From: Ferroacidibacillus organovorans
Lineage (GTDB): Bacteria > Bacillota > Bacilli > Alicyclobacillales > SLC66
Assembly: GCF_001642725.1 (NCBI RefSeq)
Contig: NZ_LSUQ01000031.1
Location: forward strand, 1-32,855
Length of the DNA stretch: 32,855 bases
Direction: 5' to 3'
Shown: positions 1,301 to 32,728 of the stretch, piece after piece
How the letters are laid out: every line of letters begins with the position of its first letter
Position numbering within the stretch: the stretch's first letter is position 1
Notes under the pieces: generated by a model
What the model was told of the DNA's origin: nothing
What the model saw: the letters and a program-made list of their open reading frames with translations, nothing else
Databases searched by the model: none
Position numbers and translations under genes: made by a program

Positions 1301-2254
1301 ATGATAAACGGGTATTACTCCATTGGTGAAACAGCTTCCCTAACGGGGCTTACGGTCAAAACCATCCGCCACTATGCAAACGAGAATGTGGTCGCTCCAT
1401 CCGTCCTCTCAGAGAAAGGGTATCGCTTGTATGCTCCGAGCGACATTTGGAGGTTGGCGTTGGTACGTCTTTTGCGGAATATGGAGTTTAATTTGCCGCA
1501 AGTTCGAAGCATTCTCAACCAATCCGCTGACATCCCATCCGTGATTCGGTGGCAAAAAGATATCTTGGACTTGCAGATAAGACACCTGACCGATGTGCGT
1601 TCACGATTGGAACAAATCCCGTTTAGTACCTTAAGCGATGCATCGCTTACACACCTTCATATGATTCTGGAGGCGATGAACATGAGTAAAGAAGACAAGC
1701 AGGCGTGGTTGACAGATCGATGGTCCGAGGTAATGATCCCAGAGGATGCTTCGGAAGATTGGAAAATAGCATTTTTACAGCAGTTAAAGGATTCCCTTCC
1801 TACGGAATGGAACGCCGAGCAAATAAGGGCGTGGACTGAATTACAAGAGTTTCTCGAAGCTCCCATGTATCGTGATCAGTTACGGGAAACTGTACGCCCA
1901 TTCTGGCAGTTGCTTGAAAAACGAACCATTGAACCCGACGATTGGCGAACTTTGATGGGTAAAGTAATGGATCGAGCCATTGTAGCGAGTCAAGCATCAC
2001 TAACGGTTGACGACTCAGAAGTTCAGTCGATCGTGGAAGAATGGATCAACGTATTCTCAACCGTTTTTCATCTTCCCGTCGATGAGACGTTCATTGCAAG
2101 GTTCTCGTACTATGCGGAATTGGTGGTGTGTGAACCGAACAAGCGGCTTTGGGAGATCATGATTCGACTTAATCCAGAGAAAATGGAGTCTCCCTTTCGT
2201 GCGCAAGTATTGATGCTTGAAGGATTACGTTGGAAATTAAAACAGATGAAATAG
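1301..2254 (+). CDS. MerR-family transcriptional regulator
   Basis: The first ~70 residues form a MerR winged helix-turn-helix: YSIGETASLTGLTVKTIRHY, then a wing around EKGYRLY, then LVRLLRNMEFNLPQVRSIL, which fits the dimerisation-helix entry. The remaining ~240 residues are a long, mostly helical and acidic effector region with no recognised ligand motif. It resembles the large regulators that sense drugs or small hydrophobic molecules, but the ligand is unknown. Three in-frame starts exist (GTG 1292, ATG 1295, ATG 1301). The last is chosen because GAAGGTG lies 7 bases upstream. The gene is divergent from the LysE-type exporter, and the pair may form a sensor/export unit (inference). Confidence 0.85.
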   Translation: MINGYYSIGETASLTGLTVKTIRHYANENVVAPSVLSEKGYRLYAPSDIWRLALVRLLRNMEFNLPQVRSILNQSADIPSVIRWQKDILDLQIRHLTDVRSRLEQIPFSTLSDASLTHLHMILEAMNMSKEDKQAWLTDRWSEVMIPEDASEDWKIAFLQQLKDSLPTEWNAEQIRAWTELQEFLEAPMYRDQLRETVRPFWQLLEKRTIEPDDWRTLMGKVMDRAIVASQASLTVDDSEVQSIVEEWINVFSTVFHLPVDETFIARFSYYAELVVCEPNKRLWEIMIRLNPEKMESPFRAQVLMLEGLRWKLKQMK

Positions 2255-2271
2255 ACGACCATGCATGCTTA

Positions 2272-2305
2272 GTGAGCAGATTCCTAATTTGTGGAATCTG
2301 CTCAC
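2272..2305 (+). terminator. Strong hairpin after the MerR-type gene
   Basis: A perfect 13-bp stem (GTGAGCAGATTCC and its complement) with an 8-base loop begins 17 bases after the stop codon. There is no T-tract on either strand, so intrinsic termination is not certain; it could protect or punctuate the transcript instead. Confidence 0.5.
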
Positions 2306-2316
2306 GTAGTAATGAT

Positions 2317-2342
2317 AGTGTGGAATGAACTTGTACCACACT
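2317..2342. repeat. Second hairpin in the same intergenic region
   Basis: AGTGTGG at 2317-2323 pairs with CCACACT at 2336-2342 around a 12-base loop, directly after the 13-bp hairpin. Its role is unknown. Confidence 0.35.
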
Positions 2343-2554
2343 CTTCCAATTCGGATCATCGGCACCTGTTTCCCTCATGTAACAAGACCTTCGGTCTTTT
2401 GCCGAAAACGGGGCCCTTATGTGAAGTGCACGTGGACTCCTGTCTTGGGACTTTAGACGCTGTGGATGTTTTTTTGCTGCTGAGGTGAGGATCGCTTTCG
2501 CTGATACTCGGATCGGCACTATGCAATTCACCCCTATAAGGATTCTGGATATGA
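2343..2554. other. Intergenic stretch with no supported gene
   Basis: Open frames here and on the opposite strand lack convincing ribosome sites and protein-like composition. A weak TTCGG/CCGAA hairpin is present near 2390. I see no RNA gene in this stretch. Confidence 0.4.
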
Positions 2555-2582
2555 AAATAAAGCAGCCTCCAGAAAGCTGCTG
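2555..2582 (-). terminator. Terminator of the tRNA-Arg gene
   Basis: On the minus strand AGCAGC and GCTGCT form a stem around a 9-base loop, followed by TTTATTTTC. It starts about 9 bases after the 3' end of the tRNA. Confidence 0.7.
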
Positions 2583-2590
2583 TTTTAGTG

Positions 2591-2665
2591 TGGTGCGCCC
2601 GAAGGGAATCGAACCCCTACCTCAGGCTCCGGAGGCCTACGTCCTATCCATTGGACCACGGGCGC
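2591..2665 (-). tRNA. tRNA-Arg, anticodon CCG
   Basis: The 75-base cloverleaf folds fully. The acceptor stem is GCGCCCG/CGGGCGC. The D arm is GTCC/GGAC. The anticodon stem TAGGC/GCCTG carries loop CTCCGGA (anticodon CCG, reading CGG), and the T arm is GGGG-TTCGATT-CCCT. The discriminator is A and the 3' CCA is encoded. It has its own promoter and terminator, so it is a single-gene unit. Confidence 0.95.
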
Positions 2666-2687
2666 ATGATTTTGATGCAACAAATGA

Positions 2688-2716
2688 AGTATACAGGGAT
2701 GATGGGGGCAACGCAA
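2688..2716 (-). promoter_or_regulatory. Promoter of tRNA-Arg
   Basis: On the minus strand TTGCGT (2711-2716) and TATACT (2688-2693) are separated by exactly 17 bp, with the tRNA beginning 22 bases after the -10 box. The -35 hexamer is identical to that of the glycolytic operon promoter in this window. Confidence 0.8.
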
Positions 2717-2865
2717 CTAAAGGCGAAATGGACTGAAAATCGGTAGGGAACGAATTGAGTTGTGAATTCGTGATTTGTTGACGGTGTGGTGGTGTTTGGG
2801 ATGTGGTTCACTTTACGAAGTGAGGGATTTGGCGTAGCATGGGGTTGGGAGGGATTGGCTTGAGA

Positions 2866-3675
2866 ATGCGATCCATTGTTGCAGGATTGGCGACTGTGGT
2901 TGTGCTTGGAACTGTGGCCGGGGTCGCTTTGAAGAATTCGGCGGTTGTCAGCGTGGGAACATCTGCGATCGGGAGTGCACTCGGAAAACTGACCGGGCAC
3001 GCGTCGCACGGGTTATCGGGGGTTCGCGCGCTGTCGCATGGGAAAACGGCTTCTGCGAAAAATCTTGTATCGACGAACAATGCACCGCCGCCGACACCTG
3101 TTGTTATCGACGGTGTGAGCATGCGCTATAACCCCTATAAACCTTCTGATGGTGCATACCCTAGCCTGGCTTTGGTTAAGCATCTATGGATTGACGTGAG
3201 CGTCGATCAACAACTCGTGTATATCATGAATGGCAATCATGTCTTATATACGATGGTGACATCGACCGGACTCGATACGGTGCCAGGGAATAGTACGCCG
3301 CTAGGGGTCTATCACGTACAGGCGGAGCGGGGAACATGGTTTTACGCGCCGCAGTATCAGATGGGTGCCCAGTACTGGGTTTCTTGGCTCGGGCATGGTG
3401 TCTTTCTCTTTCACTCGGTGACGGAGACGATCCATCATAAATTGATTCCGACTGTCGCCGCCAAGCTCCTGAGCAAAGCGTCGCACGGATGTTTCCATCT
3501 CACAATTCCTGATGCACAGTGGGTGTACAACCACATTCCTTACCACACGACGGTCGTCGTAGAACAGGCGCCTGTCCGCTTGTTGAAGCACCAAATCTAC
3601 AAACCGTCCAGCGAGCAAAAGGCGGCCGCATTGACGAATCCGCCAGGTGGCGCAAACTCGATGCAGTCATCCTGA
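2866..3675 (+). CDS. L,D-transpeptidase (YkuD domain), membrane-anchored or secreted
   Basis: An N-terminal hydrophobic segment (MRSIVAGLATVVVLGTVAGV) acts as signal or anchor, followed by a ~60-residue Ser/Ala/Pro-rich linker. The catalytic YkuD domain begins at about LWIDVSVDQQLVYIM. Its hallmark is visible: HGVFLFH, then a spacer, then SHGCFHL with the nucleophilic cysteine. These enzymes make 3-3 cross-links or attach groups in peptidoglycan outside the membrane. The ATG at 2866 follows GGGAGGG by 12 bases; TTG 2860 (6 bases) and ATG 2839 are alternatives in the same frame. A terminator directly follows, so it is probably monocistronic. The C-terminal ~30 residues are low-complexity. Confidence 0.85.
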   Translation: MRSIVAGLATVVVLGTVAGVALKNSAVVSVGTSAIGSALGKLTGHASHGLSGVRALSHGKTASAKNLVSTNNAPPPTPVVIDGVSMRYNPYKPSDGAYPSLALVKHLWIDVSVDQQLVYIMNGNHVLYTMVTSTGLDTVPGNSTPLGVYHVQAERGTWFYAPQYQMGAQYWVSWLGHGVFLFHSVTETIHHKLIPTVAAKLLSKASHGCFHLTIPDAQWVYNHIPYHTTVVVEQAPVRLLKHQIYKPSSEQKAAALTNPPGGANSMQSS

Positions 3676-3703
3676 ACTTGATTTGTAAAATTTACGAATA
3701 GAA

Positions 3704-3746
3704 AACACCAGCTGCTGGATCGCCCCAGAAGGCTGGTGTTTTTTTC
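3704..3746. terminator. Bidirectional terminator between the transpeptidase gene and comER
   Basis: AACACCAGC (3704-3712) pairs with GCTGGTGTT (3732-3740), followed on the plus strand by seven T residues. The complementary strand also ends in a T-rich tail, so it can serve the converging comER gene. Confidence 0.85.
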
Positions 3747-3791
3747 GCTTCGACAGTTTGTTTGATGTTTATGTTGATCAGTTTCTGTTAA

Positions 3792-4595
3792 TCAGTGTTG
3801 TCCACCGTCAAGGATCTCGCGTTGTCGCCGTGCGGTGGCGTCAAGTACGCGATCAAAAAGAGACTCATCCATTTTCATCAGTTCTGTAAGTCCGGCCTCC
3901 GTCACACCGCCAGGCACGGCAACCCGTTCGATGACCGTTGTAAAGTTATAGATTTCAGACGCGACGAGGGCGCCAAGCCCCTCCATCATGTGGGCAATTA
4001 GCATCTGGGCGGTCGCCATGTCCACGCCTTTTTGACAGGCGGCCTTTTGAAACAAGAACGCCAGGTGAGAAAAAAAGGCGGGTGCGCAACTGGTCAGGTC
4101 TGAGTAGATGCGCACGTCCTCTTCGGCAATCGTGTGAATTCTTCCAATGCAAGACAGCGTGTCGACAAACGCACTCCTGTCATGTGCGCGCCAGCGTTCG
4201 CTGAACATGACGAGCGCGACGCCCGCATTTGCGCGCTGCGTGACGGAGGGAATCAGCTTGCAGACGAGACTGTTGCAAAAGGTTTCAAGCTCGCACAGAG
4301 AGATTGAACTACACGTAGAGATCACCCATTGATCTTTGCGCAGTGAATTCCCAATTTCATGCATCACGGTGCGCAGATCATTTGGGCGAAGGCAGAGAAA
4401 AATCTGATCCGCGCGATCGATCGCCTCATCTAACGTGCGCACGGCTCGAATGGTTTCAGGAAACGCATTTGCGAGTGTTTCAGCCTTGTCCCAGGTGCGG
4501 TTGTAGACCGTCAACGCAGCATTTGGCGCGGCGACTGCAAGGGCGGTGGCAAGCATGCTGCCGATGCGACCGGTGCCAATCACGCCTAGGCTCAC
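3792..4595 (-). CDS. comER: ComER-like protein (pyrroline-5-carboxylate reductase family)
   Basis: About 267 residues begin with a Rossmann dinucleotide-binding motif (LGVIGTGRIGSML). The pyrroline-5-carboxylate reductase fold follows, including FLCLRPNDL, KLIPSVT and the C-terminal helical region with VPGGVTEAGL, a version of the family's PGGTT-type signature. Its divergence from biosynthetic ProC and its place beside sigL suggest ComER, the reductase-like protein found at competence loci in Bacilli whose biochemical role is unclear. The GTG start at 4593-4595 follows GGAGG by 7 bases, which is better than the more upstream frame opening. It is divergent from sigL. ProC proper is the main alternative. 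Confidence 0.7.
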   Translation of the reverse strand: MSLGVIGTGRIGSMLATALAVAAPNAALTVYNRTWDKAETLANAFPETIRAVRTLDEAIDRADQIFLCLRPNDLRTVMHEIGNSLRKDQWVISTCSSISLCELETFCNSLVCKLIPSVTQRANAGVALVMFSERWRAHDRSAFVDTLSCIGRIHTIAEEDVRIYSDLTSCAPAFFSHLAFLFQKAACQKGVDMATAQMLIAHMMEGLGALVASEIYNFTTVIERVAVPGGVTEAGLTELMKMDESLFDRVLDATARRQREILDGGQH

Positions 4596-4737
4596 AAGGA
4601 TCCCTCCACTCCTACACGATGTCATCTACAAGAGAATATGCTGACTAGAGGGTGAATACGCCTTATAGGCTCGGCAGGACTTTTTACCTTTGTCGCGAAA
4701 TATAAATCGAGGAACCATGCGCTTAGGGGGAAGGCTG

Positions 4738-6087
4738 ATGCGGCAACACGTGGAGCTTGTACTCGCCCAGCAACAGCGGCTTGCGATGACGCACACCATG
4801 CAGCAAGCGGTGGCTATCCTGCAAATGGGAACGATTGAACTGTGGAACTTTACGGAAACTGCACTTCTCGAAAATCCTCTGCTAGAGCGGGCGCAGGATG
4901 ATTTGCGCGCGCAATTTGAACAATCCCTTGCGACAACCAAACGCGAGTGGCGAGAGCGTCAGCGGCTGCGCGGTTTGGGGCAGCGCGAAGACGCCGCGTC
5001 CCTCATGAAAGATGAGCGCGTGACATCGCTTTCTGGTGCGCTTCGCGAACAAGTGGGGTTCCTCGCGATTCACGAGCGGACGGCGCGCATCCTGCGCGGG
5101 CTTATCGATTGTCTGGATGAGCGAGGATATTTGGAGCTTACGACGGCAGAATTGGCGTCCGCCTTTCATGTATCTGAGCTTGAGATTGACTCGGCGCGTT
5201 CGATTTTGCAAGGCTTTGAACCACGCGGTGTCGGTGCGCGTGATTTAAACGAATGCCTCACGCTGCAATTACTGGATCGAGCGCCGTCGGATGTTCGCTC
5301 ACTCGCGATTGAAATCGTGAACGAGCACCTCGTAGCGCTCGCAGAACCGGGCTATGCGAGACACCTCGCGCGACAACTGCGCACAACGTCAGAACGCGTG
5401 GAGGAGGCCGTTGCGCTGATCCGCGCCACCGATCCGCGACCGGGACTGCGATACACACAGAATGAAACCGAATACATCGTGCCTGATGTGAGTGTGATCC
5501 AGGTCGGTGCGCACTATGTCACAGTCGTCAATGATTGGTCTGTACCTTCACTGCGTATTTCACAACTCTATGAGTCGTGTTTAAAACGGGGATCGCGTGA
5601 AGACCAAGCGTATCTTCAGCGCCAGTGGGTAGAGGCAAAAACACTGATCCGAAGCATTGATGCAAGGCAGCGGACACTCCAGCGCGTGTGTGATCTGATG
5701 GTCGAGTATCAGGAGGATTTTTTTCATCAAGGGCCGTCTGGACTTCGTCCACTCACGATGAAGGCCGTGGCGGATGCGCTTCATCTGCACGTGTCGACGG
5801 TCAGTAGGACAGTTGCCGGAAAGTATGTGCAGACGCCGCAGGGAACAGTGGAATTGCGGAGATTCTTTGTGAATGGACTGCCTTCGGCGCAAGGTGAGGA
5901 CATCTCGTCGACCCAACTGCAAGGGATGATTCGCCGAATGATCGAGCAAGAGCGTGGCGCGCATCCGCTGTCTGATCGGGAAATCGCGGAGCGCCTTTTT
6001 GCGATGGGCAATCGGGTTTCCCGGCGCACGGTCGCCAAGTACCGTGAGGAGATGGGTTTTAAAGCGTCTTCGCGTCGGAAACGGTAG
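4738..6087 (+). CDS. sigL: RNA polymerase sigma-54 factor
   Basis: 449 residues with the three regions of RpoN/SigL. Residues 1-50 are the Gln/Leu-rich activator-interacting region (LAQQQRLAMTHTMQQAVAIL...ALLENPLLE). A core-binding region follows (PRGVGARDLNECL..., ATDPRPGLRY). The DNA-binding part ends with the helix-turn-helix LHLHVSTVSRTVAGKYVQTP and the RpoN box SRRTVAKYREEMGF near the C-terminus. It directs transcription from -24/-12 promoters with AAA+ enhancer-binding partners, none of which is encoded here. The ATG follows AGGGGGAAGG; a TATAAA at 4701-4706 may be its -10 box. A terminator separates it from cggR, so it is not part of the glycolytic operon. Confidence 0.95.
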   Translation: MRQHVELVLAQQQRLAMTHTMQQAVAILQMGTIELWNFTETALLENPLLERAQDDLRAQFEQSLATTKREWRERQRLRGLGQREDAASLMKDERVTSLSGALREQVGFLAIHERTARILRGLIDCLDERGYLELTTAELASAFHVSELEIDSARSILQGFEPRGVGARDLNECLTLQLLDRAPSDVRSLAIEIVNEHLVALAEPGYARHLARQLRTTSERVEEAVALIRATDPRPGLRYTQNETEYIVPDVSVIQVGAHYVTVVNDWSVPSLRISQLYESCLKRGSREDQAYLQRQWVEAKTLIRSIDARQRTLQRVCDLMVEYQEDFFHQGPSGLRPLTMKAVADALHLHVSTVSRTVAGKYVQTPQGTVELRRFFVNGLPSAQGEDISSTQLQGMIRRMIEQERGAHPLSDREIAERLFAMGNRVSRRTVAKYREEMGFKASSRRKR

Positions 6088-23902: not shown

Positions 23903-23918
23903 AATGGTGGTGATTACG

Positions 23919-24410
23919 ATGGCATCCTTACATGATACAGGAAAAGAACGTGGTGGAGAAAAGGTGGTCGCCCAGAATAAAAAGGCGACGCACGATTATT
24001 TTATTGAAGATACGTTTGAGGCGGGGATCGCGCTGACCGGCACGGAGATCAAATCCATCCGCGCCGGAAAAGCAAATTTGCGCGACAGTTATGCGCGCGT
24101 CGAACACGGGGAAGTCTATCTTCATAACCTGCACATCAGTCCCTATGAGGCGGGCAATCGCTTCAACCACGACCCGATGAGGACGCGCAAGCTTTTGCTG
24201 CGGCGGGCGGAGATTCGCAAGCTGATTGGCGCGACGCGCGAGTCCGGATACTCATTAGTGCCGCTCAAGATGTACCTGCGCGGCGGGTTCTGCAAGGTGC
24301 ATCTGGCGCTTGCGAAGGGCAAGAAAAACTATGACAAGCGGCACGCGATCGCGGAGCGAGACGCGAAGCGCGACTTGGCGCGGGAGTTTCGCGAGCGGCA
24401 GAAGGGTTGA
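23919..24410 (+). CDS. smpB: SsrA-binding protein SmpB
   Basis: 163 residues. Family motifs are clear: [59 protein letters not shown] and [23 protein letters not shown]. It ends with the positively charged tail ([17 protein letters not shown]) that enters the mRNA channel of stalled ribosomes. It delivers tmRNA for trans-translation. ATG 23919 is favoured over ATG 23904, because GGTGGTG lies just before it while 23904 would sit directly on the promoter -10 region. The tmRNA gene follows about 250 bases downstream, as in Bacillus. Confidence 0.95.
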
Positions 24411-24659: not shown

Positions 24660-25037
24660 GGGGGCGTTCTGGATTCGACGGGGATTGTTCGAGCATGAGC
24701 GGCGGGTCGTGGGGCTGCGGCCACGTTAATCACGCGGACCTAAATACAAACGCAAAAACACAACGCAACACCTTCACAAGCAGTAACCTCGCTCTCGCTG
24801 CCTAATAAGCCTTGAGTGACGTCTTTATTTCCTTCTCCCATGGGGATGTAGAGGCGCTACCTTAGTGGGATAGTCGGGGCGGTTGCTCGTGCGCCACCGA
24901 TGAATCAAAACGCGAGCTAGCCGTCACGTGAGCGCGTCGCTGCGCGCATGCGACGGTGAATCTTAAATCGGCGACTACACCCGTAGATGTGATTGTAGCG
25001 AGGTCTTCGGACAGGGGTTCGACTCCCCTCGCCTCCA
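24660..25037 (+). ncRNA. ssrA: Transfer-messenger RNA (tmRNA)
   Basis: The 5' end (GGGGGCGTTCTGGATTCGAC) and 3' end (GGGGTTCGACTCCCC then TCGCCTCCA) pair as a tRNA-like acceptor and T arm; the 7-bp acceptor has one G-T pair. The internal reading frame starts at GCA 24752 and encodes AKTQRNTFTSSNLALAA, ending in tandem TAA codons (24803-24808). The LALAA end is the expected proteolysis degron. The 3' CCA is not encoded (TTA follows the discriminator A), so it must be added enzymatically. It works with SmpB to rescue stalled ribosomes. Confidence 0.95.
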
Positions 25038-25758: not shown

Positions 25759-28700
25759 TTGAAATCCTCAGTTGTAAAGTTTTCAAAGCACACGAAGGGC
25801 TTTAGGCGCTATCTTCTCGCCATAGCCAGCGCCGTCTTGTTCTTGTCACCGACCGCGTCTGCTTTGGCTGCTACTGTACCCATTGTGGGTCACGATTGGC
25901 AAGCCAATCTACGTGCAGGTCCTCCGTCTGCCTCGGTCGAACTGATGCAGTACCGCACGTCTCGATCCCAGACGTTTCTGAATCCCAACGATAGTTTTAC
26001 AACCAAATTATATCCCATACCTGTCTTCTATCGCGATGCGTCCGGTCACTGGCAGCCCATCAACAATTCGTTAACACCGAACAATGCGTCCAAATTCACC
26101 AATCAAGCAGGTCCCTTGCATGCCACGTTTCCGCAGACGTTGGCCAACGGCGCCGCGATTGCGGTGTCACCGGGTGGCAACCCGAACGAATTCGAAATGT
26201 CCCTGATCGGGGAGACCGAGACGGCGCCCGCAACGGTCAAGGGGAACTCGATATCCTATCCGAATGTGCACCCCGGCGTTGATCTCTCTTACGCGATGCA
26301 AGCAGACCATGTGAAGGAATCAATCATCCTGCACAGTGCCACGGCACCCACCACATTCTCCTTTCTTCTGCACGCGCCAGGCATCACATTCAGCCAGTTG
26401 CAGGACGGCTCCATCGTGGGCAAGAACGCACAAGGCAACAGCCTGTACACGATCCCGGCGCCCTTTATGACCGACGCCCATGGCGCGATGTCGAAGGCCG
26501 TCACATCTGCGCTGTCGACCAACAGCCGGGGAGACACCGTACTGACCGTGTCTGCGAATGCCACGTGGCTGGCAGATCCCGCGCGCGCCTATCCCGTGAC
26601 GATCGATCCGTCCGTCAGTGTCACTCCGATCGGTTCGAACGTCATGAACTCCTCCATCGCCTCTGGGTATCCAACCGCCTCGTATGACTCAGACTCCCAT
26701 CTCTACGTCGGTTATGCATTCGGCTATGACATCCTGCGCGGACTGGTTGAGTTTCAGGATCTGCCGAATCTCCTCGCTGGCGGTACGTCTGCCACGATCA
26801 CCAACGCGTCGCTCTATCTGTATCAGGATTCGGCCAGTACGGGCGGATTGGCGGTGCAAGTCTTGCCGATCACGCAATCGTGGCAGCCAAGTTCCGTGTC
26901 GTACAACCAACAACCCAGCGTCGGCAGTGTTCTGGATACCGAGTCGCAGGCGACATCAGACGTGAGTTCCTCATCTCCGTATGTAGGTGATTGGGTCTTC
27001 AATGTCACCTCTGCGATCCAAAGCGAGTATGCGGATCAAAGCCCGAACTTCGGTTTGGAACTGCGCGCGCAAAATGAATCGAGCGCCACAACGGACGCCT
27101 GGTTCGCCTCTGGATACAACGCCACGGAGCCGTTACCTTCTCTGAACATCACCTATACGGTCAACCCCGTCGGCAGCGATGCGGCCTGGATGCATTCGTC
27201 CGACGGCGTGAACTATGCCGGTGGGAACCTTTCGCTTCCCTTTGTCGATCTGAATACGCCAGGCCGCGGTCCCGAGGTGAGCATCACCCGGACGTTTAAC
27301 TCGAAGAATCTCAGTGTCAATGAGGGGTTTGGCAACGGCTGGTCAAGCAACGTTCTGATGCACCTCAACGTCAGTTCCCTTCCGGGTCCGATTCTCTTTA
27401 CCGACGCGACCGGCGCGGTGCATGTGCTCGCACCTACAGGCGTCAATACCTGGGCGGATGCAGGTTCCGAGCATGAAACACTGACCCAAAACAGCAATGG
27501 CACGTTTACACTGTCTCAGCTCGACGGCATGACGCTGCAGTTCACGAGCATGGGTCAACTGTCGGCGATACAGCAAGAAGAACAAAACGGCTCCACACAG
27601 TCCGTCACATTCGGGTACACCGGGAATCAGTTGTCAACGATCACGGACGCATCCGGACGGATTTGGCACGTCACGTACAACAGTAGTGGCCTGATCAGTC
27701 AGATCACCGATCCTAGCTCACGGACGGCCACATACAGCTACGATGCAAGCGGCAATCTGACGAGCGCCGTGACATCTCCCGCGAGCGGCACCACCGGAGA
27801 TGTCACGTCGACCACGAGTTATGCCTACAGTTCCACCAATCCCGAACTGACCGTCACAGACCCGGACGGCAATCAGACGACCTACGACTGGAACAGCAGC
27901 GGCGTCGTGTCGTCCGTCTCCCGCACGGTGGAAGGCACGACGGCCACAACCTCCTACGCTTGGGGCACGGTGCCGAGCGGCCAAACCGACGCTGGTGACG
28001 AGGAGGTTACCGTGACGGATCCCGTGGGCCATACGTCAGAATACGTGACCAACGCCGATGGCAACGTCGTGGAGACGATCGTCAATCCGGGCGGGTCCCC
28101 ATCGTACACGACGTCCTACACCTGGGATGGGAATAACGATCACACCGGAATCACCGACCCAAACGGCCACTCCGTCCAGGCGCTTTACAACAGCAACGGT
28201 GACCTCACGCAGTTCACGGATGCGCGAGGCGTCACGTCCAATTACGCGTATGGTAGCCTGGACAACGCCAAAGGCGCAAACAACAGTAACGGCGCGACGA
28301 CGCACGCGGCGTACAATGGCACCTTGGTGACCGACGGCATCGACGCGGCTGGTAATGACACGATGGTGACCTATGGCCAAAATGGCAACCCGACGGCCGT
28401 AACTGCCCCGGAAGGTCTGGGCAACAACCTGATCCCCAACAGCGACTTCGCCTTGGTCGATCCCACCACGAGTTTGCCGATGGACTGGGAGAACGCCACA
28501 TCGGGCGTGACGGTGGACACGAATGCGGCGGACGCCATTCGCGGATCCACGAGCCTCGAGATCAACGCGACGACGGCGGCATCGGACCGGATGAGCCAAT
28601 CCATCGCGGTCACGGCCGGCGAGACGTACAATCTGTCTGCGTACATTCGCACGAGCGGCGTCACGAATGACCAAAGCGGCTACGGGGCGGGCATTAGCGC

Positions 28701-31700
28701 GTTTTGGCTCAACAGTTCCGGCGCGCTCGTCTCCGCCCAGTACGCGATCATGAACAACACCGGCACGGTCGACTGGACGCGAAAATACGCCGAGCTCACA
28801 GCGCCCGCCGGGGCGACACAGCTTCAACTTTCCGGCGCCCTCTATGGGGCGGGGATCGTATGGTTTGATGGGATGCAGCTCGAACCGGTCGCGTCTTCGC
28901 CGAATCTCCTGCTCAACACATCCTTTGTAGACAACCCGAGCGGATCTGTTATGCCAGAAAACTGGGATACGAGTACACTACGAGCCAGCAGCGACGGTCT
29001 GGATCTTTCGAATGAGGATAACGGCTTCCCATCACTTTTGGTCAACGGCGATGGCGCCGCCAAGTCGTTTTCGCAAACCATCAACGCGCCACAGTACGCG
29101 ATCGGCGGATTCTTGCTTTCCGGCTCATCGAAGCAAAGCGGCGCTACGGCCAATTACACGGTCACGGCGACGGTGACGTATACGGATACCACCACCTCGT
29201 CGATGTCCTTGACATTCTCAGATACGGCCAGCGGTTGGCAGACGCAGTCCGTCCCCGTGCCGGTCACGAGCGGTAAGACCATCCAGAGTGTCACGGTCAC
29301 CGGAGATTTCAGCAATGAAAGTACCGGTAGTCAGGCGTGGTTTAACGACATAAAGCTACGCGTTTTGCCCCAATTGTCTTCGTTCAGCGCCTATAACTTC
29401 GTGCAAAATCCGGGCTTTGCATTCAATTATCAGGGCGGGACGCTTCCGGACGATTGGAAGGATCTACAGACAGGAACCGGCACGCCGTCCTGGTCGCAAA
29501 CGGAGTCCTATGATGCACAAGGCCATTCGCTTGAAATCCACCCAGGTACCAGTGGCTCGACGGAGGAAGTAGCCAACGACGGGCTCGCACCGTATAAATC
29601 CTACGCGCACTATGCCGCAGATGGCTATATCCACACGGAGGGGCTCGCTTCCGACTCGGCGTATATCGCCCTTCAGGCGCTCAGCAGTAGCGGGGGCGTG
29701 CTGGCGACGTATCCCTCGGGCAAAGTGGGCCACTCGCAGGCCAACAGCCAGGGGAATGTTCCCTGGACGCACGTGATCGTGGACGTTCCCGCTGCGCAGT
29801 TGCCAAATGGGACGGTAAGTGTTCGCGTGGTGCTCTGCCAGGATGCGGACGTGAGCGGCGGATCGGGCAATGGCAACAGCTATTTTGATGACATTCGGCT
29901 CTCGTCGTGGGATTTGAGCACGCACTACGCCTACGACAGCGCGGATAACTACGTCACGTCTGTCACGGACCCAAATGGCAACACGACGACGTTCACGCCA
30001 AACGCCAACACCGGCTTTGATACATCGGTCACGGACCCACTGGGCAACCAGACGACGTACACGAGCAACAAATTTGACGAGACGACCGGCACCACATTAC
30101 CGACGGGTGCCACCTTCTCGTACGGCTACGACGCGAATGGCAACCTGACGAGCGTGAGCGACCCGAACGGGCATGCCGTGCAGTACGGGTACAACGCGCT
30201 CAGCCAGGTGACCCAGTACACGGAGACGGTGGGTGGCACCGCGCTGACGACGGGCTTCCATCACAACGGCGACGGCCAGATGACGGAGATCGACAACCCG
30301 AACACGACGTCGACCACCTTTGGCTACAACGCGGCAGGCCAACTGGACAGCACGTCGTACTACAATTCGGCGGGGCTGGCGGATCAGTGGGGCTTTTCCT
30401 ACGACGGGGTGGGCAACCTGACGCAGATGCAGGAGAACACGGCCACTTCTCCAACGACGTATGGCTATGATCCGAACAACCACTTGACGAGCGTCAGCGA
30501 ACCGGTGAGCGGAGGCGGCGCTGATACGCAGCAGTGGACACTCGACCCAAGCGGGAACCCGACGAGTATCCATTACCAACTCGGTTCCAGTACGGGGCCT
30601 AGCTGGACGCTCAGCAACGCGTACGACATCGCGAGTCGCCTGACCAGCCTGCAGGACGGAAATAGAACGCAGAGCTTCGAGTACGATGATCATGGCAATG
30701 TGGTCAAGATCACGGATGAGCCGACGGGTGAGGCGCAGTACGCGCAATCCGAGTCCTTCACGTACGATCCGGCAGATCACATTTCGCACGTCGTGTCTCT
30801 GGTCAGCAACACGGATCTGTCGTACACGGATGACGCTGATGGCCGCGTGACGAAGATCACGAACAACCTCACGGGAGCCTCGGTCACCTTCACCTACAAT
30901 GCCATCGGTGAGTTGACGCAGGAGACGACATGGGATGGGCGGACCATTACCTATGGCTATGACAGCGATGGGAACCGGACGTCCATGTCGGTTACGCAAA
31001 ATGGAACGACCACCACAACGAACTACGGCTATGATCCTGAGCAAAACCGGCTGACCTCGATCACCACAGGCAGCAACGCGGCGCAGTCCGTCACGTATGA
31101 CAATGCAGGCAACACGTTGTCCGACGGGACGAACACCTACACGTGGAATGCGGCCAACGAACTGGCGAGTGTTACACATGCCGCAACAACGTATAATTAT
31201 ACGTACGATGGCTTGGGCCGCCGCGTGACGGCTTATGGGTACACGTATCACTACAACGGGCTGTCTGATCAGATCGCGTACATCACGGACGCAAACAACA
31301 ACCTGGTGGCTCGATTCTCGTATGGGGCCAATGGCCTCCCAGCCTACATGACGATGGTCAGCGGCGGTTCGACCTACGTGTATCGGTATATCTACGATGG
31401 CCAGGGCGATGTGATCGGGCTGGTGGACGTTACGACGGGAAGCGCTACGGTGGGGCAAGAGGTTGTGACTTACGGCTACGACGCCTGGGGCAACGAGATC
31501 CCGTCGCTGACCACCGACACGTCGGGGACCAACGCGGGGACAATCAACCCGTTTACGTACCGGGGCTATGTGTACGACTCGCAGACGGGGTTATACTACC
31601 TGAATGCGCGGTATTATAATCCTGTGACAGGGCGGTTTTTGAGCGAGGATCCGATTGGGCCAAATGCGTCTGCAGTCTTGAGTTACAATGAATACGTGTA

Positions 31701-32070
31701 TGCTGGGAACAATCCTATCAGTAATGTGGATCCCACCGGGATGTTAACATGGCAGCAAGCCGAGACAGCAGTTAGAGAAGCCACAGGGGGTATTTCAAAG
31801 GCGTTTCGCTCGCAAGAAACTAACGCTGTGCGGATCGTTGATAGCTATACTGAGGGTGTTGCTTACGAAGTTAAGACTGGCTACACCGTGGCATCGAAAT
31901 TCGTAAGGAAACAAGTTGCGAAAGATGTTCAACTTATGAAGGAGGATGTTGTAAAATCAGTTAAATGGGTATTCACACGGAGCGATAGAACCGGAAAAAT
32001 TGGGCCTAACGATCCTTTAAAAAAGATTCTTGATGAAGGTGGCATTGAGACGGAGTTTCTTGATGGATAG
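25759..32070 (+). CDS. Secreted RHS/YD-repeat polymorphic toxin with PD-(D/E)xK nuclease-like tip
   Basis: 2103 residues from TTG (AAAGGGG 8 bases upstream). Order: signal peptide (1-38, cleaving near SALAA); DNRLRE/carbohydrate-binding-like domain (about 285-469); RHS entry domain (about 474-570); YD repeats (about 614-888). Three related beta-sandwich-like modules follow (starting near 890, 1049 and 1213, each with an N-x-[NG]-x-x-F...DW/NW pattern). Then a second YD block (about 1386-1930) and the RHS core motif (YYLNARYYNPVTGRFLSEDP...NPISNVDPTG, about 1937-1994). The last 109 residues are the variable tip: D2028, E2037 and K2039 (VDSYTEGVAYEVKTGY), then RKQVAKDVQLM and RSDRTGKIGPNDPL. 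This matches the restriction-endonuclease-fold toxin pattern. The core encapsulates the tip, which probably acts on DNA in competitor cells. Confidence 0.85.
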   Translation: MKSSVVKFSKHTKGFRRYLLAIASAVLFLSPTASALAATVPIVGHDWQANLRAGPPSASVELMQYRTSRSQTFLNPNDSFTTKLYPIPVFYRDASGHWQPINNSLTPNNASKFTNQAGPLHATFPQTLANGAAIAVSPGGNPNEFEMSLIGETETAPATVKGNSISYPNVHPGVDLSYAMQADHVKESIILHSATAPTTFSFLLHAPGITFSQLQDGSIVGKNAQGNSLYTIPAPFMTDAHGAMSKAVTSALSTNSRGDTVLTVSANATWLADPARAYPVTIDPSVSVTPIGSNVMNSSIASGYPTASYDSDSHLYVGYAFGYDILRGLVEFQDLPNLLAGGTSATITNASLYLYQDSASTGGLAVQVLPITQSWQPSSVSYNQQPSVGSVLDTESQATSDVSSSSPYVGDWVFNVTSAIQSEYADQSPNFGLELRAQNESSATTDAWFASGYNATEPLPSLNITYTVNPVGSDAAWMHSSDGVNYAGGNLSLPFVDLNTPGRGPEVSITRTFNSKNLSVNEGFGNGWSSNVLMHLNVSSLPGPILFTDATGAVHVLAPTGVNTWADAGSEHETLTQNSNGTFTLSQLDGMTLQFTSMGQLSAIQQEEQNGSTQSVTFGYTGNQLSTITDASGRIWHVTYNSSGLISQITDPSSRTATYSYDASGNLTSAVTSPASGTTGDVTSTTSYAYSSTNPELTVTDPDGNQTTYDWNSSGVVSSVSRTVEGTTATTSYAWGTVPSGQTDAGDEEVTVTDPVGHTSEYVTNADGNVVETIVNPGGSPSYTTSYTWDGNNDHTGITDPNGHSVQALYNSNGDLTQFTDARGVTSNYAYGSLDNAKGANNSNGATTHAAYNGTLVTDGIDAAGNDTMVTYGQNGNPTAVTAPEGLGNNLIPNSDFALVDPTTSLPMDWENATSGVTVDTNAADAIRGSTSLEINATTAASDRMSQSIAVTAGETYNLSAYIRTSGVTNDQSGYGAGISAFWLNSSGALVSAQYAIMNNTGTVDWTRKYAELTAPAGATQLQLSGALYGAGIVWFDGMQLEPVASSPNLLLNTSFVDNPSGSVMPENWDTSTLRASSDGLDLSNEDNGFPSLLVNGDGAAKSFSQTINAPQYAIGGFLLSGSSKQSGATANYTVTATVTYTDTTTSSMSLTFSDTASGWQTQSVPVPVTSGKTIQSVTVTGDFSNESTGSQAWFNDIKLRVLPQLSSFSAYNFVQNPGFAFNYQGGTLPDDWKDLQTGTGTPSWSQTESYDAQGHSLEIHPGTSGSTEEVANDGLAPYKSYAHYAADGYIHTEGLASDSAYIALQALSSSGGVLATYPSGKVGHSQANSQGNVPWTHVIVDVPAAQLPNGTVSVRVVLCQDADVSGGSGNGNSYFDDIRLSSWDLSTHYAYDSADNYVTSVTDPNGNTTTFTPNANTGFDTSVTDPLGNQTTYTSNKFDETTGTTLPTGATFSYGYDANGNLTSVSDPNGHAVQYGYNALSQVTQYTETVGGTALTTGFHHNGDGQMTEIDNPNTTSTTFGYNAAGQLDSTSYYNSAGLADQWGFSYDGVGNLTQMQENTATSPTTYGYDPNNHLTSVSEPVSGGGADTQQWTLDPSGNPTSIHYQLGSSTGPSWTLSNAYDIASRLTSLQDGNRTQSFEYDDHGNVVKITDEPTGEAQYAQSESFTYDPADHISHVVSLVSNTDLSYTDDADGRVTKITNNLTGASVTFTYNAIGELTQETTWDGRTITYGYDSDGNRTSMSVTQNGTTTTTNYGYDPEQNRLTSITTGSNAAQSVTYDNAGNTLSDGTNTYTWNAANELASVTHAATTYNYTYDGLGRRVTAYGYTYHYNGLSDQIAYITDANNNLVARFSYGANGLPAYMTMVSGGSTYVYRYIYDGQGDVIGLVDVTTGSATVGQEVVTYGYDAWGNEIPSLTTDTSGTNAGTINPFTYRGYVYDSQTGLYYLNARYYNPVTGRFLSEDPIGPNASAVLSYNEYVYAGNNPISNVDPTGMLTWQQAETAVREATGGISKAFRSQETNAVRIVDSYTEGVAYEVKTGYTVASKFVRKQVAKDVQLMKEDVVKSVKWVFTRSDRTGKIGPNDPLKKILDEGGIETEFLDG

Positions 32071-32089
32071 GTTTTAAGGAGTGGGGAAT

Positions 32090-32728
32090 TTGAATGAGAA
32101 AAATAATGGTTCGCGTTTCTATCTACCGTTGAAACCTCCAACAGATAAGAATCTTTTGGAGGTTTCAAAAAAAGGATACGAGGACATGACAAACCAGGAA
32201 GCGAAGAATCTTTCTAGGTGGAAGGTTGACCATCTCTTTCCGGAGCGACTCTCTGTACTGATCGAGGTATGCGAATTCGACGATATTAAATTAGACTTCT
32301 CCATTAGATCTCTTGTTTACGTTTGGGAATGGTTCCTAAAGAATATGAGTTATGCGAATCGTACAGAAGAGGAAATCGGCGATGAAATACGTGTGCTTCC
32401 TGATCCCTTAAGGTCGGTAGTGAATATTGATCGCGTAAAGTTTGACGAAAAAACTTTCACCATGATCTACGATATATCAATTTACTACGGAGAGGTTGTC
32501 ATTCGGCATCATCCAGAGATTTATTGGGGTGTTCTCCTAAAGCGAAAGAGAGATTTCAACTATCACAAGACTGTTTTAATGAGTTCCAAACGTGACTTGA
32601 GTTTTAATACAATTAACATGGTGAATGTACTTGCAGGGAAGGCAAAAGATGGGAACCTAAACCGATTTGCCCTTTTGGATCACTACACTATGTACAGAGA
32701 AACGGGAGTATATGCGAAACTGGATTGA
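32090..32728 (+). CDS. Probable immunity protein for the RHS toxin tip
   Basis: 212 residues, soluble and charged, with no signal peptide. It starts 19 bases after the toxin stop, where immunity genes of polymorphic toxins sit. TTG 32090 is chosen because AAGGAG ends 8 bases before it; GTG 32081 overlaps that site. Visible features include a Trp/Phe-rich helix (FSIRSLVYVWEWFLKNM) and an alternating segment (FTMIYDISIYYGEVVIRHHPEIYWGVLL). I do not recognise the family, so the role rests on position. Composition is clearly AT-rich compared with the RHS body, like the toxin tip, suggesting both were gained together. Its stop overlaps a short frame that encodes a second tip remnant. Confidence 0.6.
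   Translation: MNEKNNGSRFYLPLKPPTDKNLLEVSKKGYEDMTNQEAKNLSRWKVDHLFPERLSVLIEVCEFDDIKLDFSIRSLVYVWEWFLKNMSYANRTEEEIGDEIRVLPDPLRSVVNIDRVKFDEKTFTMIYDISIYYGEVVIRHHPEIYWGVLLKRKRDFNYHKTVLMSSKRDLSFNTINMVNVLAGKAKDGNLNRFALLDHYTMYRETGVYAKLD

What the first reader, a model, noticed from the sequence alone, without database searches (positions are those of the whole stretch)
25759..32728. RHS polymorphic toxin with REase-like tip and adjacent putative immunity gene
A secreted RHS shell ends in DPTG followed by a 109-residue tip with D-x8-E-x-K (D2028, E2037, K2039) and a conserved-looking RSDRTGKIGPNDPL segment, typical of PD-(D/E)xK toxins of RHS/YD proteins. The following gene has the position expected for a cognate immunity protein, but I do not recognise its family, so this pair may be undescribed.
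Basis: partly seen in the sequence, partly recalled or inferred. Interest (0 to 1): 0.65.

Follow-up and report, generated by a model that had tools for sequence, protein, structure and literature searches.

The report
Widespread nuclease toxin and immunity pair
A bacterium carries a large, probably secreted protein tipped with a small domain that looks like a DNA- or RNA-cutting toxin and, right behind it, the gene of a protein that probably protects the producer; the same pair turns up in many distant bacteria but matched no named family in the libraries searched here.

Summary
Confirmed and extended. The 2103-residue RHS protein (25759-32070) ends in a 109-residue tip with D2028-x8-E2037-x-K2039, and a 212-residue gene (TTG 32090, stop 32728) follows 19 bases later behind AAGGAG. 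In 33 aligned tips these D, E and K never vary. AlphaFold2 models the tip confidently (pLDDT 92.4); VIA-align matches it to restriction-endonuclease-like nucleases, Foldseek only weakly. Tip homologues lie in 42 genome loci of 11 phyla and 2 viral contigs, on RHS, haemagglutinin (CDI) and other carriers. An immunity profile built without those 44 loci finds a homologous gene within 330 bases downstream in 36 of 44, and in 0 of 44 after shuffling. The eight misses include all six Actinomycetota. No convincing match for either family in Pfam, NCBIfam or PDB sequences; PADLOC was searched with the tips only. Of five related RHS shells read, two carry other tips and one almost none. Best reading: an antibacterial PD-(D/E)xK nuclease toxin with cognate immunity, a new family of a well-known kind. 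Toxicity, substrate and neutralisation are untested.

The parts
25759..32070 (+). RHS/YD-repeat protein, 2103 aa, TTG start, probably secreted
   Evidence: ORF; Pfam RHS_repeat E 2.6e-58, DUF6531 E 2.9e-11; Rhs_assc_core E 2e-21, DNRLRE E 7.1e-21. Signal-peptide-like N-terminus read by eye only (basic stretch, hydrophobic core, ALAA).
26656..27153 (+). DNRLRE domain of the RHS protein (residues 300-465)
   Evidence: NCBIfam NF033679, E 7.1e-21
31477..31743 (+). RHS-associated core, end of the shell (residues 1907-1995), with DPIGP (1964) and DPTGM (1991)
   Evidence: TIGR03696; motif positions
31741..32067 (+). C-terminal toxin tip, residues 1995-2103, PD-(D/E)xK-type fold; E2002, D2028, E2037, K2039, Q2052
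   Evidence: alignment A4, residue counts, AlphaFold2 pLDDT 92.4 pTM 0.84, VIA-align matches
31840..31875 (+). D2028-x8-E2037-x-K2039 active-site-like motif
   Evidence: 33 of 33 aligned tips keep D, E and K; invariant columns in the 43-sequence alignment A5
32076..32081 (+). Ribosome-binding-site-like AAGGAG, 8 bases before TTG 32090
   Evidence: sequence
32090..32728 (+). Putative cognate immunity protein, 212 aa (215 aa if GTG 32081 is used)
   Evidence: ORF; homologues downstream of tip homologues; AlphaFold2 of the 215-aa form pLDDT 91.7 pTM 0.87

Best explanation
The locus is a polymorphic-toxin system. A secreted RHS protein forms a shell that carries, after the DPTGM end of its core, a small PD-(D/E)xK nuclease; the tip is released and enters neighbouring bacteria, where a metal-dependent active site (D2028, E2037, K2039, helped by E2002 and Q2052) cuts nucleic acid, more likely DNA than RNA. 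The 212-residue product of the next gene stays in the producer's cytoplasm, binds the tip and blocks it, so that kin survive. The tip-immunity pair is an exchangeable cassette that moves between unrelated delivery proteins. Shown here: the ORFs, the motif, the predicted fold, the family, the genetic linkage, the carrier diversity and different tips on related shells. Inferred: secretion, release, entry, toxicity, substrate, binding and protection.
For: Motif and fold. VIA-align: AF1548 Z 10.9 (96 residues, 2.4 A; listed as of unknown function), EndoMS-DNA complex Z 9.0 (93, 2.3 A), SfsA 8.8, a Pyrococcus repair endonuclease 8.7, a CdiA toxin-immunity complex 7.1. Linkage: a profile from 5 immunity sequences (window plus plasmid loci) finds 40 homologous ORFs among 3549 in 44 other loci, all on the toxin strand; 36 of 44 loci have one, the nearest opening between 63 bases before and 330 bases after the toxin end; shuffled ORFs 0 of 44. 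Toxin and partner divergence correlate over 25 pairs (Spearman 0.47; 0 of 2000 permutations as high). Window partner vs Rhizobium and Burkholderia partners E 7e-12 and 1e-10. Carriers: RHS_repeat in 10 of 43 toxin ORFs, haemagglutinin repeats in 2, PT-TG and PT-HINT in 1 each. Cassette: tip plus partner 41.2% G+C against 56.5-62.4% for equal-length pieces of the shell. Related shells: relatives in 6 other genomes of 59, five read: one ~150-residue other tip, one ~200-residue other tip, one about 25 residues, two not readable to the end; none of their 541 ORFs matches either profile.
Against: No assay, no complex model. Foldseek gives no match at E <= 0.001 (best 2.3e-3) and lists many Ras-type GTPases; VIA-align's lower rows include PRPP synthetases and RNA polymerase subunits. 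Partners are only 19-31% identical to the window's. Eight of 44 loci lack the partner by the blind profile: all six Actinomycetota, L027, and L052, where a transposase-like ORF intervenes (its partner homologue lies further on). Two genomes of the window's phylum have a partner homologue and no tip found, though not every candidate of the first look was scored. The mirror correlation can also come from shared descent. The window's tip lacks the terminal His that 24 of 33 tips have.
Confidence: 0.85

Rival explanations
1. Same system, but the tip is an RNase (for instance a tRNase) and not a DNase.
For: A CdiA-CT/CdiI complex is among the structural matches (4zqu, Z 7.1; what that toxin cuts comes from no call). 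WapA, an RHS toxin of B. subtilis (RHS nature recalled), is called a tRNase in an abstract start seen in a listing (PMC5566331).
Against: Several higher-ranked matches are DNA enzymes by their titles (EndoMS with DNA Z 9.0, repair endonuclease Z 8.7). The related-in-kind PoNe family is a magnesium-dependent DNase (passages of PMC6688995). None of this fixes the substrate.
Confidence: 0.3
2. The tip is a decayed or silent remnant and the following gene is an orphan.
For: The window's tip lacks the terminal His of 24 of 33 tips; broken toxins beside intact partners occur elsewhere (L010/L011, L052/L064, L053).
Against: The frame is open and all seven residues invariant in A5 are kept; the partner gene has a good ribosome-binding site.
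Confidence: 0.08
3. The downstream gene is a hitch-hiking cassette gene with another role, not an immunity protein.
For: No binding evidence; the model's one standout match is a Bacteroides protein (3hlz, BT_1490, Z 11.2 over 128 residues, 3.5 A) whose name occurs in papers on B12-binding proteins (listing), below the level the tool calls safe for helical proteins.
Against: 36 of 44 loci, with record titles of 10 phyla, keep it behind the toxin; extra tandem copies in L012, L028 and L050 and survival beside broken toxins fit an immunity gene.
Confidence: 0.08

Closest known systems
PoNe/PoNi (PD-(D/E)xK DNase toxin with DUF1910/DUF1911 immunity)
   Same: Small PD-(D/E)xK C-terminal toxin shared by several delivery systems and followed by a dedicated immunity gene (passages of PMC6688995).
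   Different: PoNe motif Kx3GExnGIDx2YxnYx3ExK in a 167-residue domain (residues 283-449); here about 105 residues with GE..RxxD..AxExKxGY..QxxKD, and no DUF1910/1911 match in any of 28 partner sequences at E <= 0.1.
Tox-REase-7 (Pfam PF15649)
   Same: Published motif list GxxxE, IxD, ExK, Q resembles E8, D34, E43xK45, Q58 of this family (passages of PMC3482391).
   Different: None of 33 tips matches PF15649 at E <= 0.1. Published partners are ImmHEAT, Imm23 and Imm54; no Pfam family of such a name was among the matches of 28 partner sequences.
WapA/WapI of Bacillus subtilis
   Same: RHS protein with a C-terminal nuclease toxin (tRNase, abstract start in listing; architecture and WapI recalled).
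   Different: WapA and WapI sequences were not compared here, so relation of tip and partner is untested.
CdiA-CT/CdiI-type loci of Burkholderia and Rhizobium
   Same: L006, L008 and L009 carry this tip and partner family, in L006 and L009 at the end of annotated haemagglutinin-type proteins; L007 has the pair without annotation.
   Different: Delivered by haemagglutinin-type proteins instead of an RHS shell.

Membership tests
Polymorphic toxin-immunity systems | Variable C-terminal tip after a conserved delivery shell | tested here: met
   Of 5 related shells read, 2 carry other tips, 1 about 25 residues, 2 not readable; no A4 or A3 hit in 541 ORFs of L076-L080
Polymorphic toxin-immunity systems | Same tip on different carriers | tested here: met
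   RHS, haemagglutinin, PT-HINT and PT-TG carriers, 247-codon ORFs with a signal-peptide-like start
Polymorphic toxin-immunity systems | Cognate gene directly downstream | tested here: met
   36 of 44 loci, blind profile
Polymorphic toxin-immunity systems | Downstream protein neutralises the tip | not testable with these tools
   needs co-expression
PD-(D/E)xK (restriction-endonuclease-like) superfamily | Core fold with D and E-x-K on adjacent strands | tested here: met
   Model strands 30-37 (D34) and 40-46 (E43, K45), pLDDT 92.4; VIA-align matches. Foldseek alone is weak
PD-(D/E)xK (restriction-endonuclease-like) superfamily | Metal-dependent nuclease activity | not testable with these tools
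   needs assay
Tox-REase-7 (PF15649) | Match to the curated profile | tested here: not met
   0 of 33 tips at E <= 0.1
Tox-REase-7 (PF15649) | Profile-to-profile relation to Tox-REase-7 | not tested
   No PF15649 member was found to align: 0 of 200 and 0 of 249 genomes, controls silent too
PoNe/PoNi | PoNe motif Kx3GExnGIDx2YxnYx3ExK | tested here: not met
   Compared by eye with alignment A4: the E-x-K stands in A-x-E-x-K-x-G-Y, without the Y three residues before it
PoNe/PoNi | DUF1910/DUF1911 immunity | tested here: not met
   0 of 28 partner sequences match at E <= 0.1

The most novel reading that the evidence does not exclude
An unnamed, pan-bacterial PD-(D/E)xK toxin family with its own immunity family, spread over at least 11 phyla and several delivery systems, one branch of which (Actinomycetota, TSP3-repeat proteins with an apparent membrane anchor, 6 of 6 without an immunity homologue in the fetched flanks) has settled into a fixed architecture and works without this immunity protein, perhaps against targets that leave the producer unharmed.
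Probability: 0.4. Interest if true: 0.55.

Novelty: new member of a known kind. Interest (0 to 1): 0.45.

Why it matters
A likely nuclease toxin and its protector recur across distant phyla without a profile in the curated libraries searched; where partners were annotated in the plasmid records read, they are called 'hypothetical protein'. The alignments give a ready profile for both genes, a definite active-site prediction and a simple co-expression test. The actinobacterial branch without this partner asks how a producer avoids its own nuclease.

Tried and rejected
Tried without result: scans of genome contigs and viral contigs with the tip alone; tip and partner in 18 family genomes (only the own genome). 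The tip alone against 398 phylum genomes gave three weak hits besides its own (L003-L005, E 0.003-0.007, one genus); rejected because in the two that I read the hit lies in a lipoprotein-like ORF; L005 was not read. Phage records: no match. PDB by sequence: the tip alone gave two designed repeat proteins (whole-sequence E 2.6e-10 and 2.8e-5, no single stretch passing), other searches nothing better than E 0.1. Weak one- or two-member matches in Pfam (best E 0.0069), NCBIfam (best 0.003), PADLOC (best 0.0057) and PHROGs (best 0.03) are taken as chance. DPIGP and DPTGM in the shell are 22 residues apart, not the 18 that I recall for self-cleaving RHS proteins, so self-cleavage is not claimed. 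Membership in Tox-REase-7 and PoNe was tested and dropped. A second copy of the tmRNA end was sought in the window and not found. A complex of tip and partner could not be modelled. Literature: no mention of the family found (five short peptide words, 0 papers); only titles, abstract starts and passages were seen and the library is open-access only, so this is weak. The name of the window's phylum is told by no call; I take it for a Bacillota, class Bacilli, by inference only.

Row handling: the 44 loci are not fully independent (L022 and L055 nearly identical, L020 and L021 close); all were counted. L010 and L011 (two strains, same region) are not among the 44. A3 and A4 hold 28 and 33 chosen members, not all loci. 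A5 leaves out L050 and L053 because their toxin frames are broken or very short. L047's genome was not held. One of six related-shell genomes (G879) was not read.

Full report
What is there. The RHS gene 25759-32070 encodes 2103 residues with RHS repeats, DUF6531, a DNRLRE domain and an RHS-associated core that ends at residue 1995. It is the only RHS core found in the genome. The N-terminus looks like a signal peptide (read by eye). The tip of 109 residues follows the end of the core, from the M of DPTGM. Nineteen bases after its stop, and 8 bases behind AAGGAG, starts a 212-residue gene.

The tip. Alone it has no convincing Pfam or NCBIfam match. A six-frame search of 72,556 plasmid records found it in Burkholderia (2 records) and Rhizobium (3 records), 39-42% identical, E 5e-10 to 2e-9, in three of the five under an annotated haemagglutinin-type gene. 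An alignment of the window's tip with three of these (A1), used as query, gave 42 loci in the genome collection, whose record titles name members of Bacillota, Chloroflexota, Pseudomonadota, Bacteroidota, Eremiobacterota, Verrucomicrobiota, Peregrinibacteria, Planctomycetota, Actinomycetota, Acidobacteriota and Armatimonadota (many are MAGs, whose assignment can err; the phylum of each named genus is general knowledge), and 2 viral contigs. In 33 aligned tips R31, D34, A41, E43, K45, G47, D62, L65, F78, S81, G88 and L97 never vary, Q58 is kept in 32 and E8 in 30. In the 43-sequence alignment of longer toxin ORFs, R2025, D2028, A2035, E2037, K2039, G2041 and D2056 never vary.

Fold. AlphaFold2 with these 33 sequences gives pLDDT 92.4 and pTM 0.84, helix 4-15, strands 18-23, 30-37, 40-46, helix 53-67, strand 73-79, helix 91-99, strand 103-107. 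D34 and E43/K45 fall on two successive strands, Q58 on the next helix. VIA-align ranks AF1548 (unknown function; Z 10.9, 96 residues, 2.4 A), EndoMS with DNA (9.0, 93, 2.3), SfsA (8.8, 101, 2.9), a Pyrococcus repair endonuclease (8.7, 94, 2.7) and CRISPR-associated and restriction nucleases, with a CdiA-CT/CdiI complex at 7.1; further down also PRPP synthetases and an RNA polymerase subunit. Foldseek is weaker, best E 2.3e-3 (EndoMS), with many Ras-type GTPases. Motif, strand order and VIA-align together make me take the PD-(D/E)xK fold as well supported.

The partner. The 212-residue protein has no Pfam, NCBIfam or PDB-sequence match, and 28 members of its family show only scattered weak ones (best E 0.0049). 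PADLOC was not searched with it (cap). It aligns with the genes behind the Rhizobium (22% identity, E 7e-12) and Burkholderia (26%, E 1e-10) tips. A profile from 5 such proteins (window and plasmid loci, A2) was run over all 3549 ORFs of at least 40 codons in the 44 loci: 40 ORFs hit, none on the other strand; 36 of 44 loci have one, the nearest opening from 63 bases before to 330 bases after the toxin end; shuffled ORFs 0 of 44. These 36 loci cover all named phyla but Actinomycetota. Misses: L035, L039, L040, L044, L048, L049 (all six Actinomycetota), L027 (only a weak match to the larger profile) and L052. In L052's genome the toxin homology is interrupted by a transposase-like ORF, and the partner homologue follows the second toxin piece (L064). 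Over 25 pairs the pairwise identities of toxin and partner correlate (Spearman 0.47, 0 of 2000 permutations as high), which shared descent could also give. Extra copies lie in tandem in L012, L028 and L050. In 348 phylum genomes the tip profile rings only in the window's own genome, the partner profile in 3, so two genomes hold a partner without a tip found (in one search not all first-look candidates were scored); the copy in G236 is split over several frames. The partner's model (pLDDT 91.7, pTM 0.87) is mostly helical with a C-terminal beta part; one solved chain stands out, 3hlz (Z 11.2, 128 residues, 3.5 A), a Bacteroides protein whose name occurs in papers on B12-binding proteins (listing only). 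The tool warns that Z under about 13 can be chance for helical models, so I draw nothing from it.

Cassette character. Tip plus partner have 41.2% G+C; pieces of the same length inside the shell have 56.5-62.4%, and only 1 of 638 pieces of the window is lower, itself overlapping the cassette. The RHS gene starts about 720 bases after the tmRNA gene (24660-25037), which follows smpB, a usual island site (general knowledge), but no second copy of the tmRNA end was found in the window. The N-terminal part of the shell has relatives in 6 other genomes of 59 of its order. I read five: L077 has a ~150-residue different tip, L079 a ~200-residue different tip, L076 only about 25 residues from DPSGM on, and L078 and L080 could not be read to the end of the shell. 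None of their 541 ORFs matches either profile.

Mechanism. Secreted RHS shell, tip delivered to neighbours, metal-dependent cleavage of nucleic acid by D2028/E2037/K2039, protection of kin by the 212-residue protein. The steps after sequence and fold are inferred. DNA is favoured over RNA because several of the top structural matches are DNA enzymes, but WapA of B. subtilis is called a tRNase in an abstract start seen in the listing (PMC5566331).

Known relatives. Passages of the 2012 survey of polymorphic toxins (PMC3482391) list ten Tox-REase clades; Tox-REase-7 has a similar motif list, yet no tip of 33 matches its Pfam profile, and a profile comparison could not be made because no PF15649 member was found to align. 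Passages of the PoNe paper (PMC6688995) describe a toxin of the same kind with another motif and another immunity family. The passages seen of PMC9291907 and PMC4725963 treat CDI toxins of Burkholderia and Pseudomonas and do not name such a family. Text searches found no mention, in an open-access library only.

Verdict. This is a new, widespread family of a well-known kind of system.

Noticed in passing
L035, L039, L040, L044, L048, L049 (toxin ORFs at about 2228-4333): Actinomycetota relatives are alike over most of their length (best pairwise alignments 40-59% identity) with an apparent membrane anchor (by eye) and an intact active-site motif, and 6 of 6 have no immunity homologue in the fetched flanks; Pfam's TSP3 repeat matches 6 of the 43 toxin ORFs scanned, by sequence these six.
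   Followed up: partly
window 23904-24410 and 24660-25037: smpB and the tmRNA gene (tag AKTQRNTFTSSNLALAA) lie upstream of the RHS gene; a common insertion site of mobile DNA.
   Followed up: partly
L054 and L055 (about 3500-4895); L022: In two viral contigs and in B. safensis the toxin sits in a 247-codon ORF of its own with a signal-peptide-like start, followed by the immunity gene; possibly prophage-borne.
   Followed up: no
L064, L053, L010/L011, L050: Toxin frames interrupted or shortened while an immunity homologue persists beside them.
   Followed up: partly
L012, L028, L050: Two or more immunity homologues in tandem behind one toxin.
   Followed up: no
window 31741-32728: Tip and immunity gene are 41% G+C in a shell of 58% G+C.
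   Followed up: yes
L077 (minus-strand ORF end): A related shell ends in a different tip with an HNH-like look (SHEPIP..GG..H), read by eye only.
   Followed up: no
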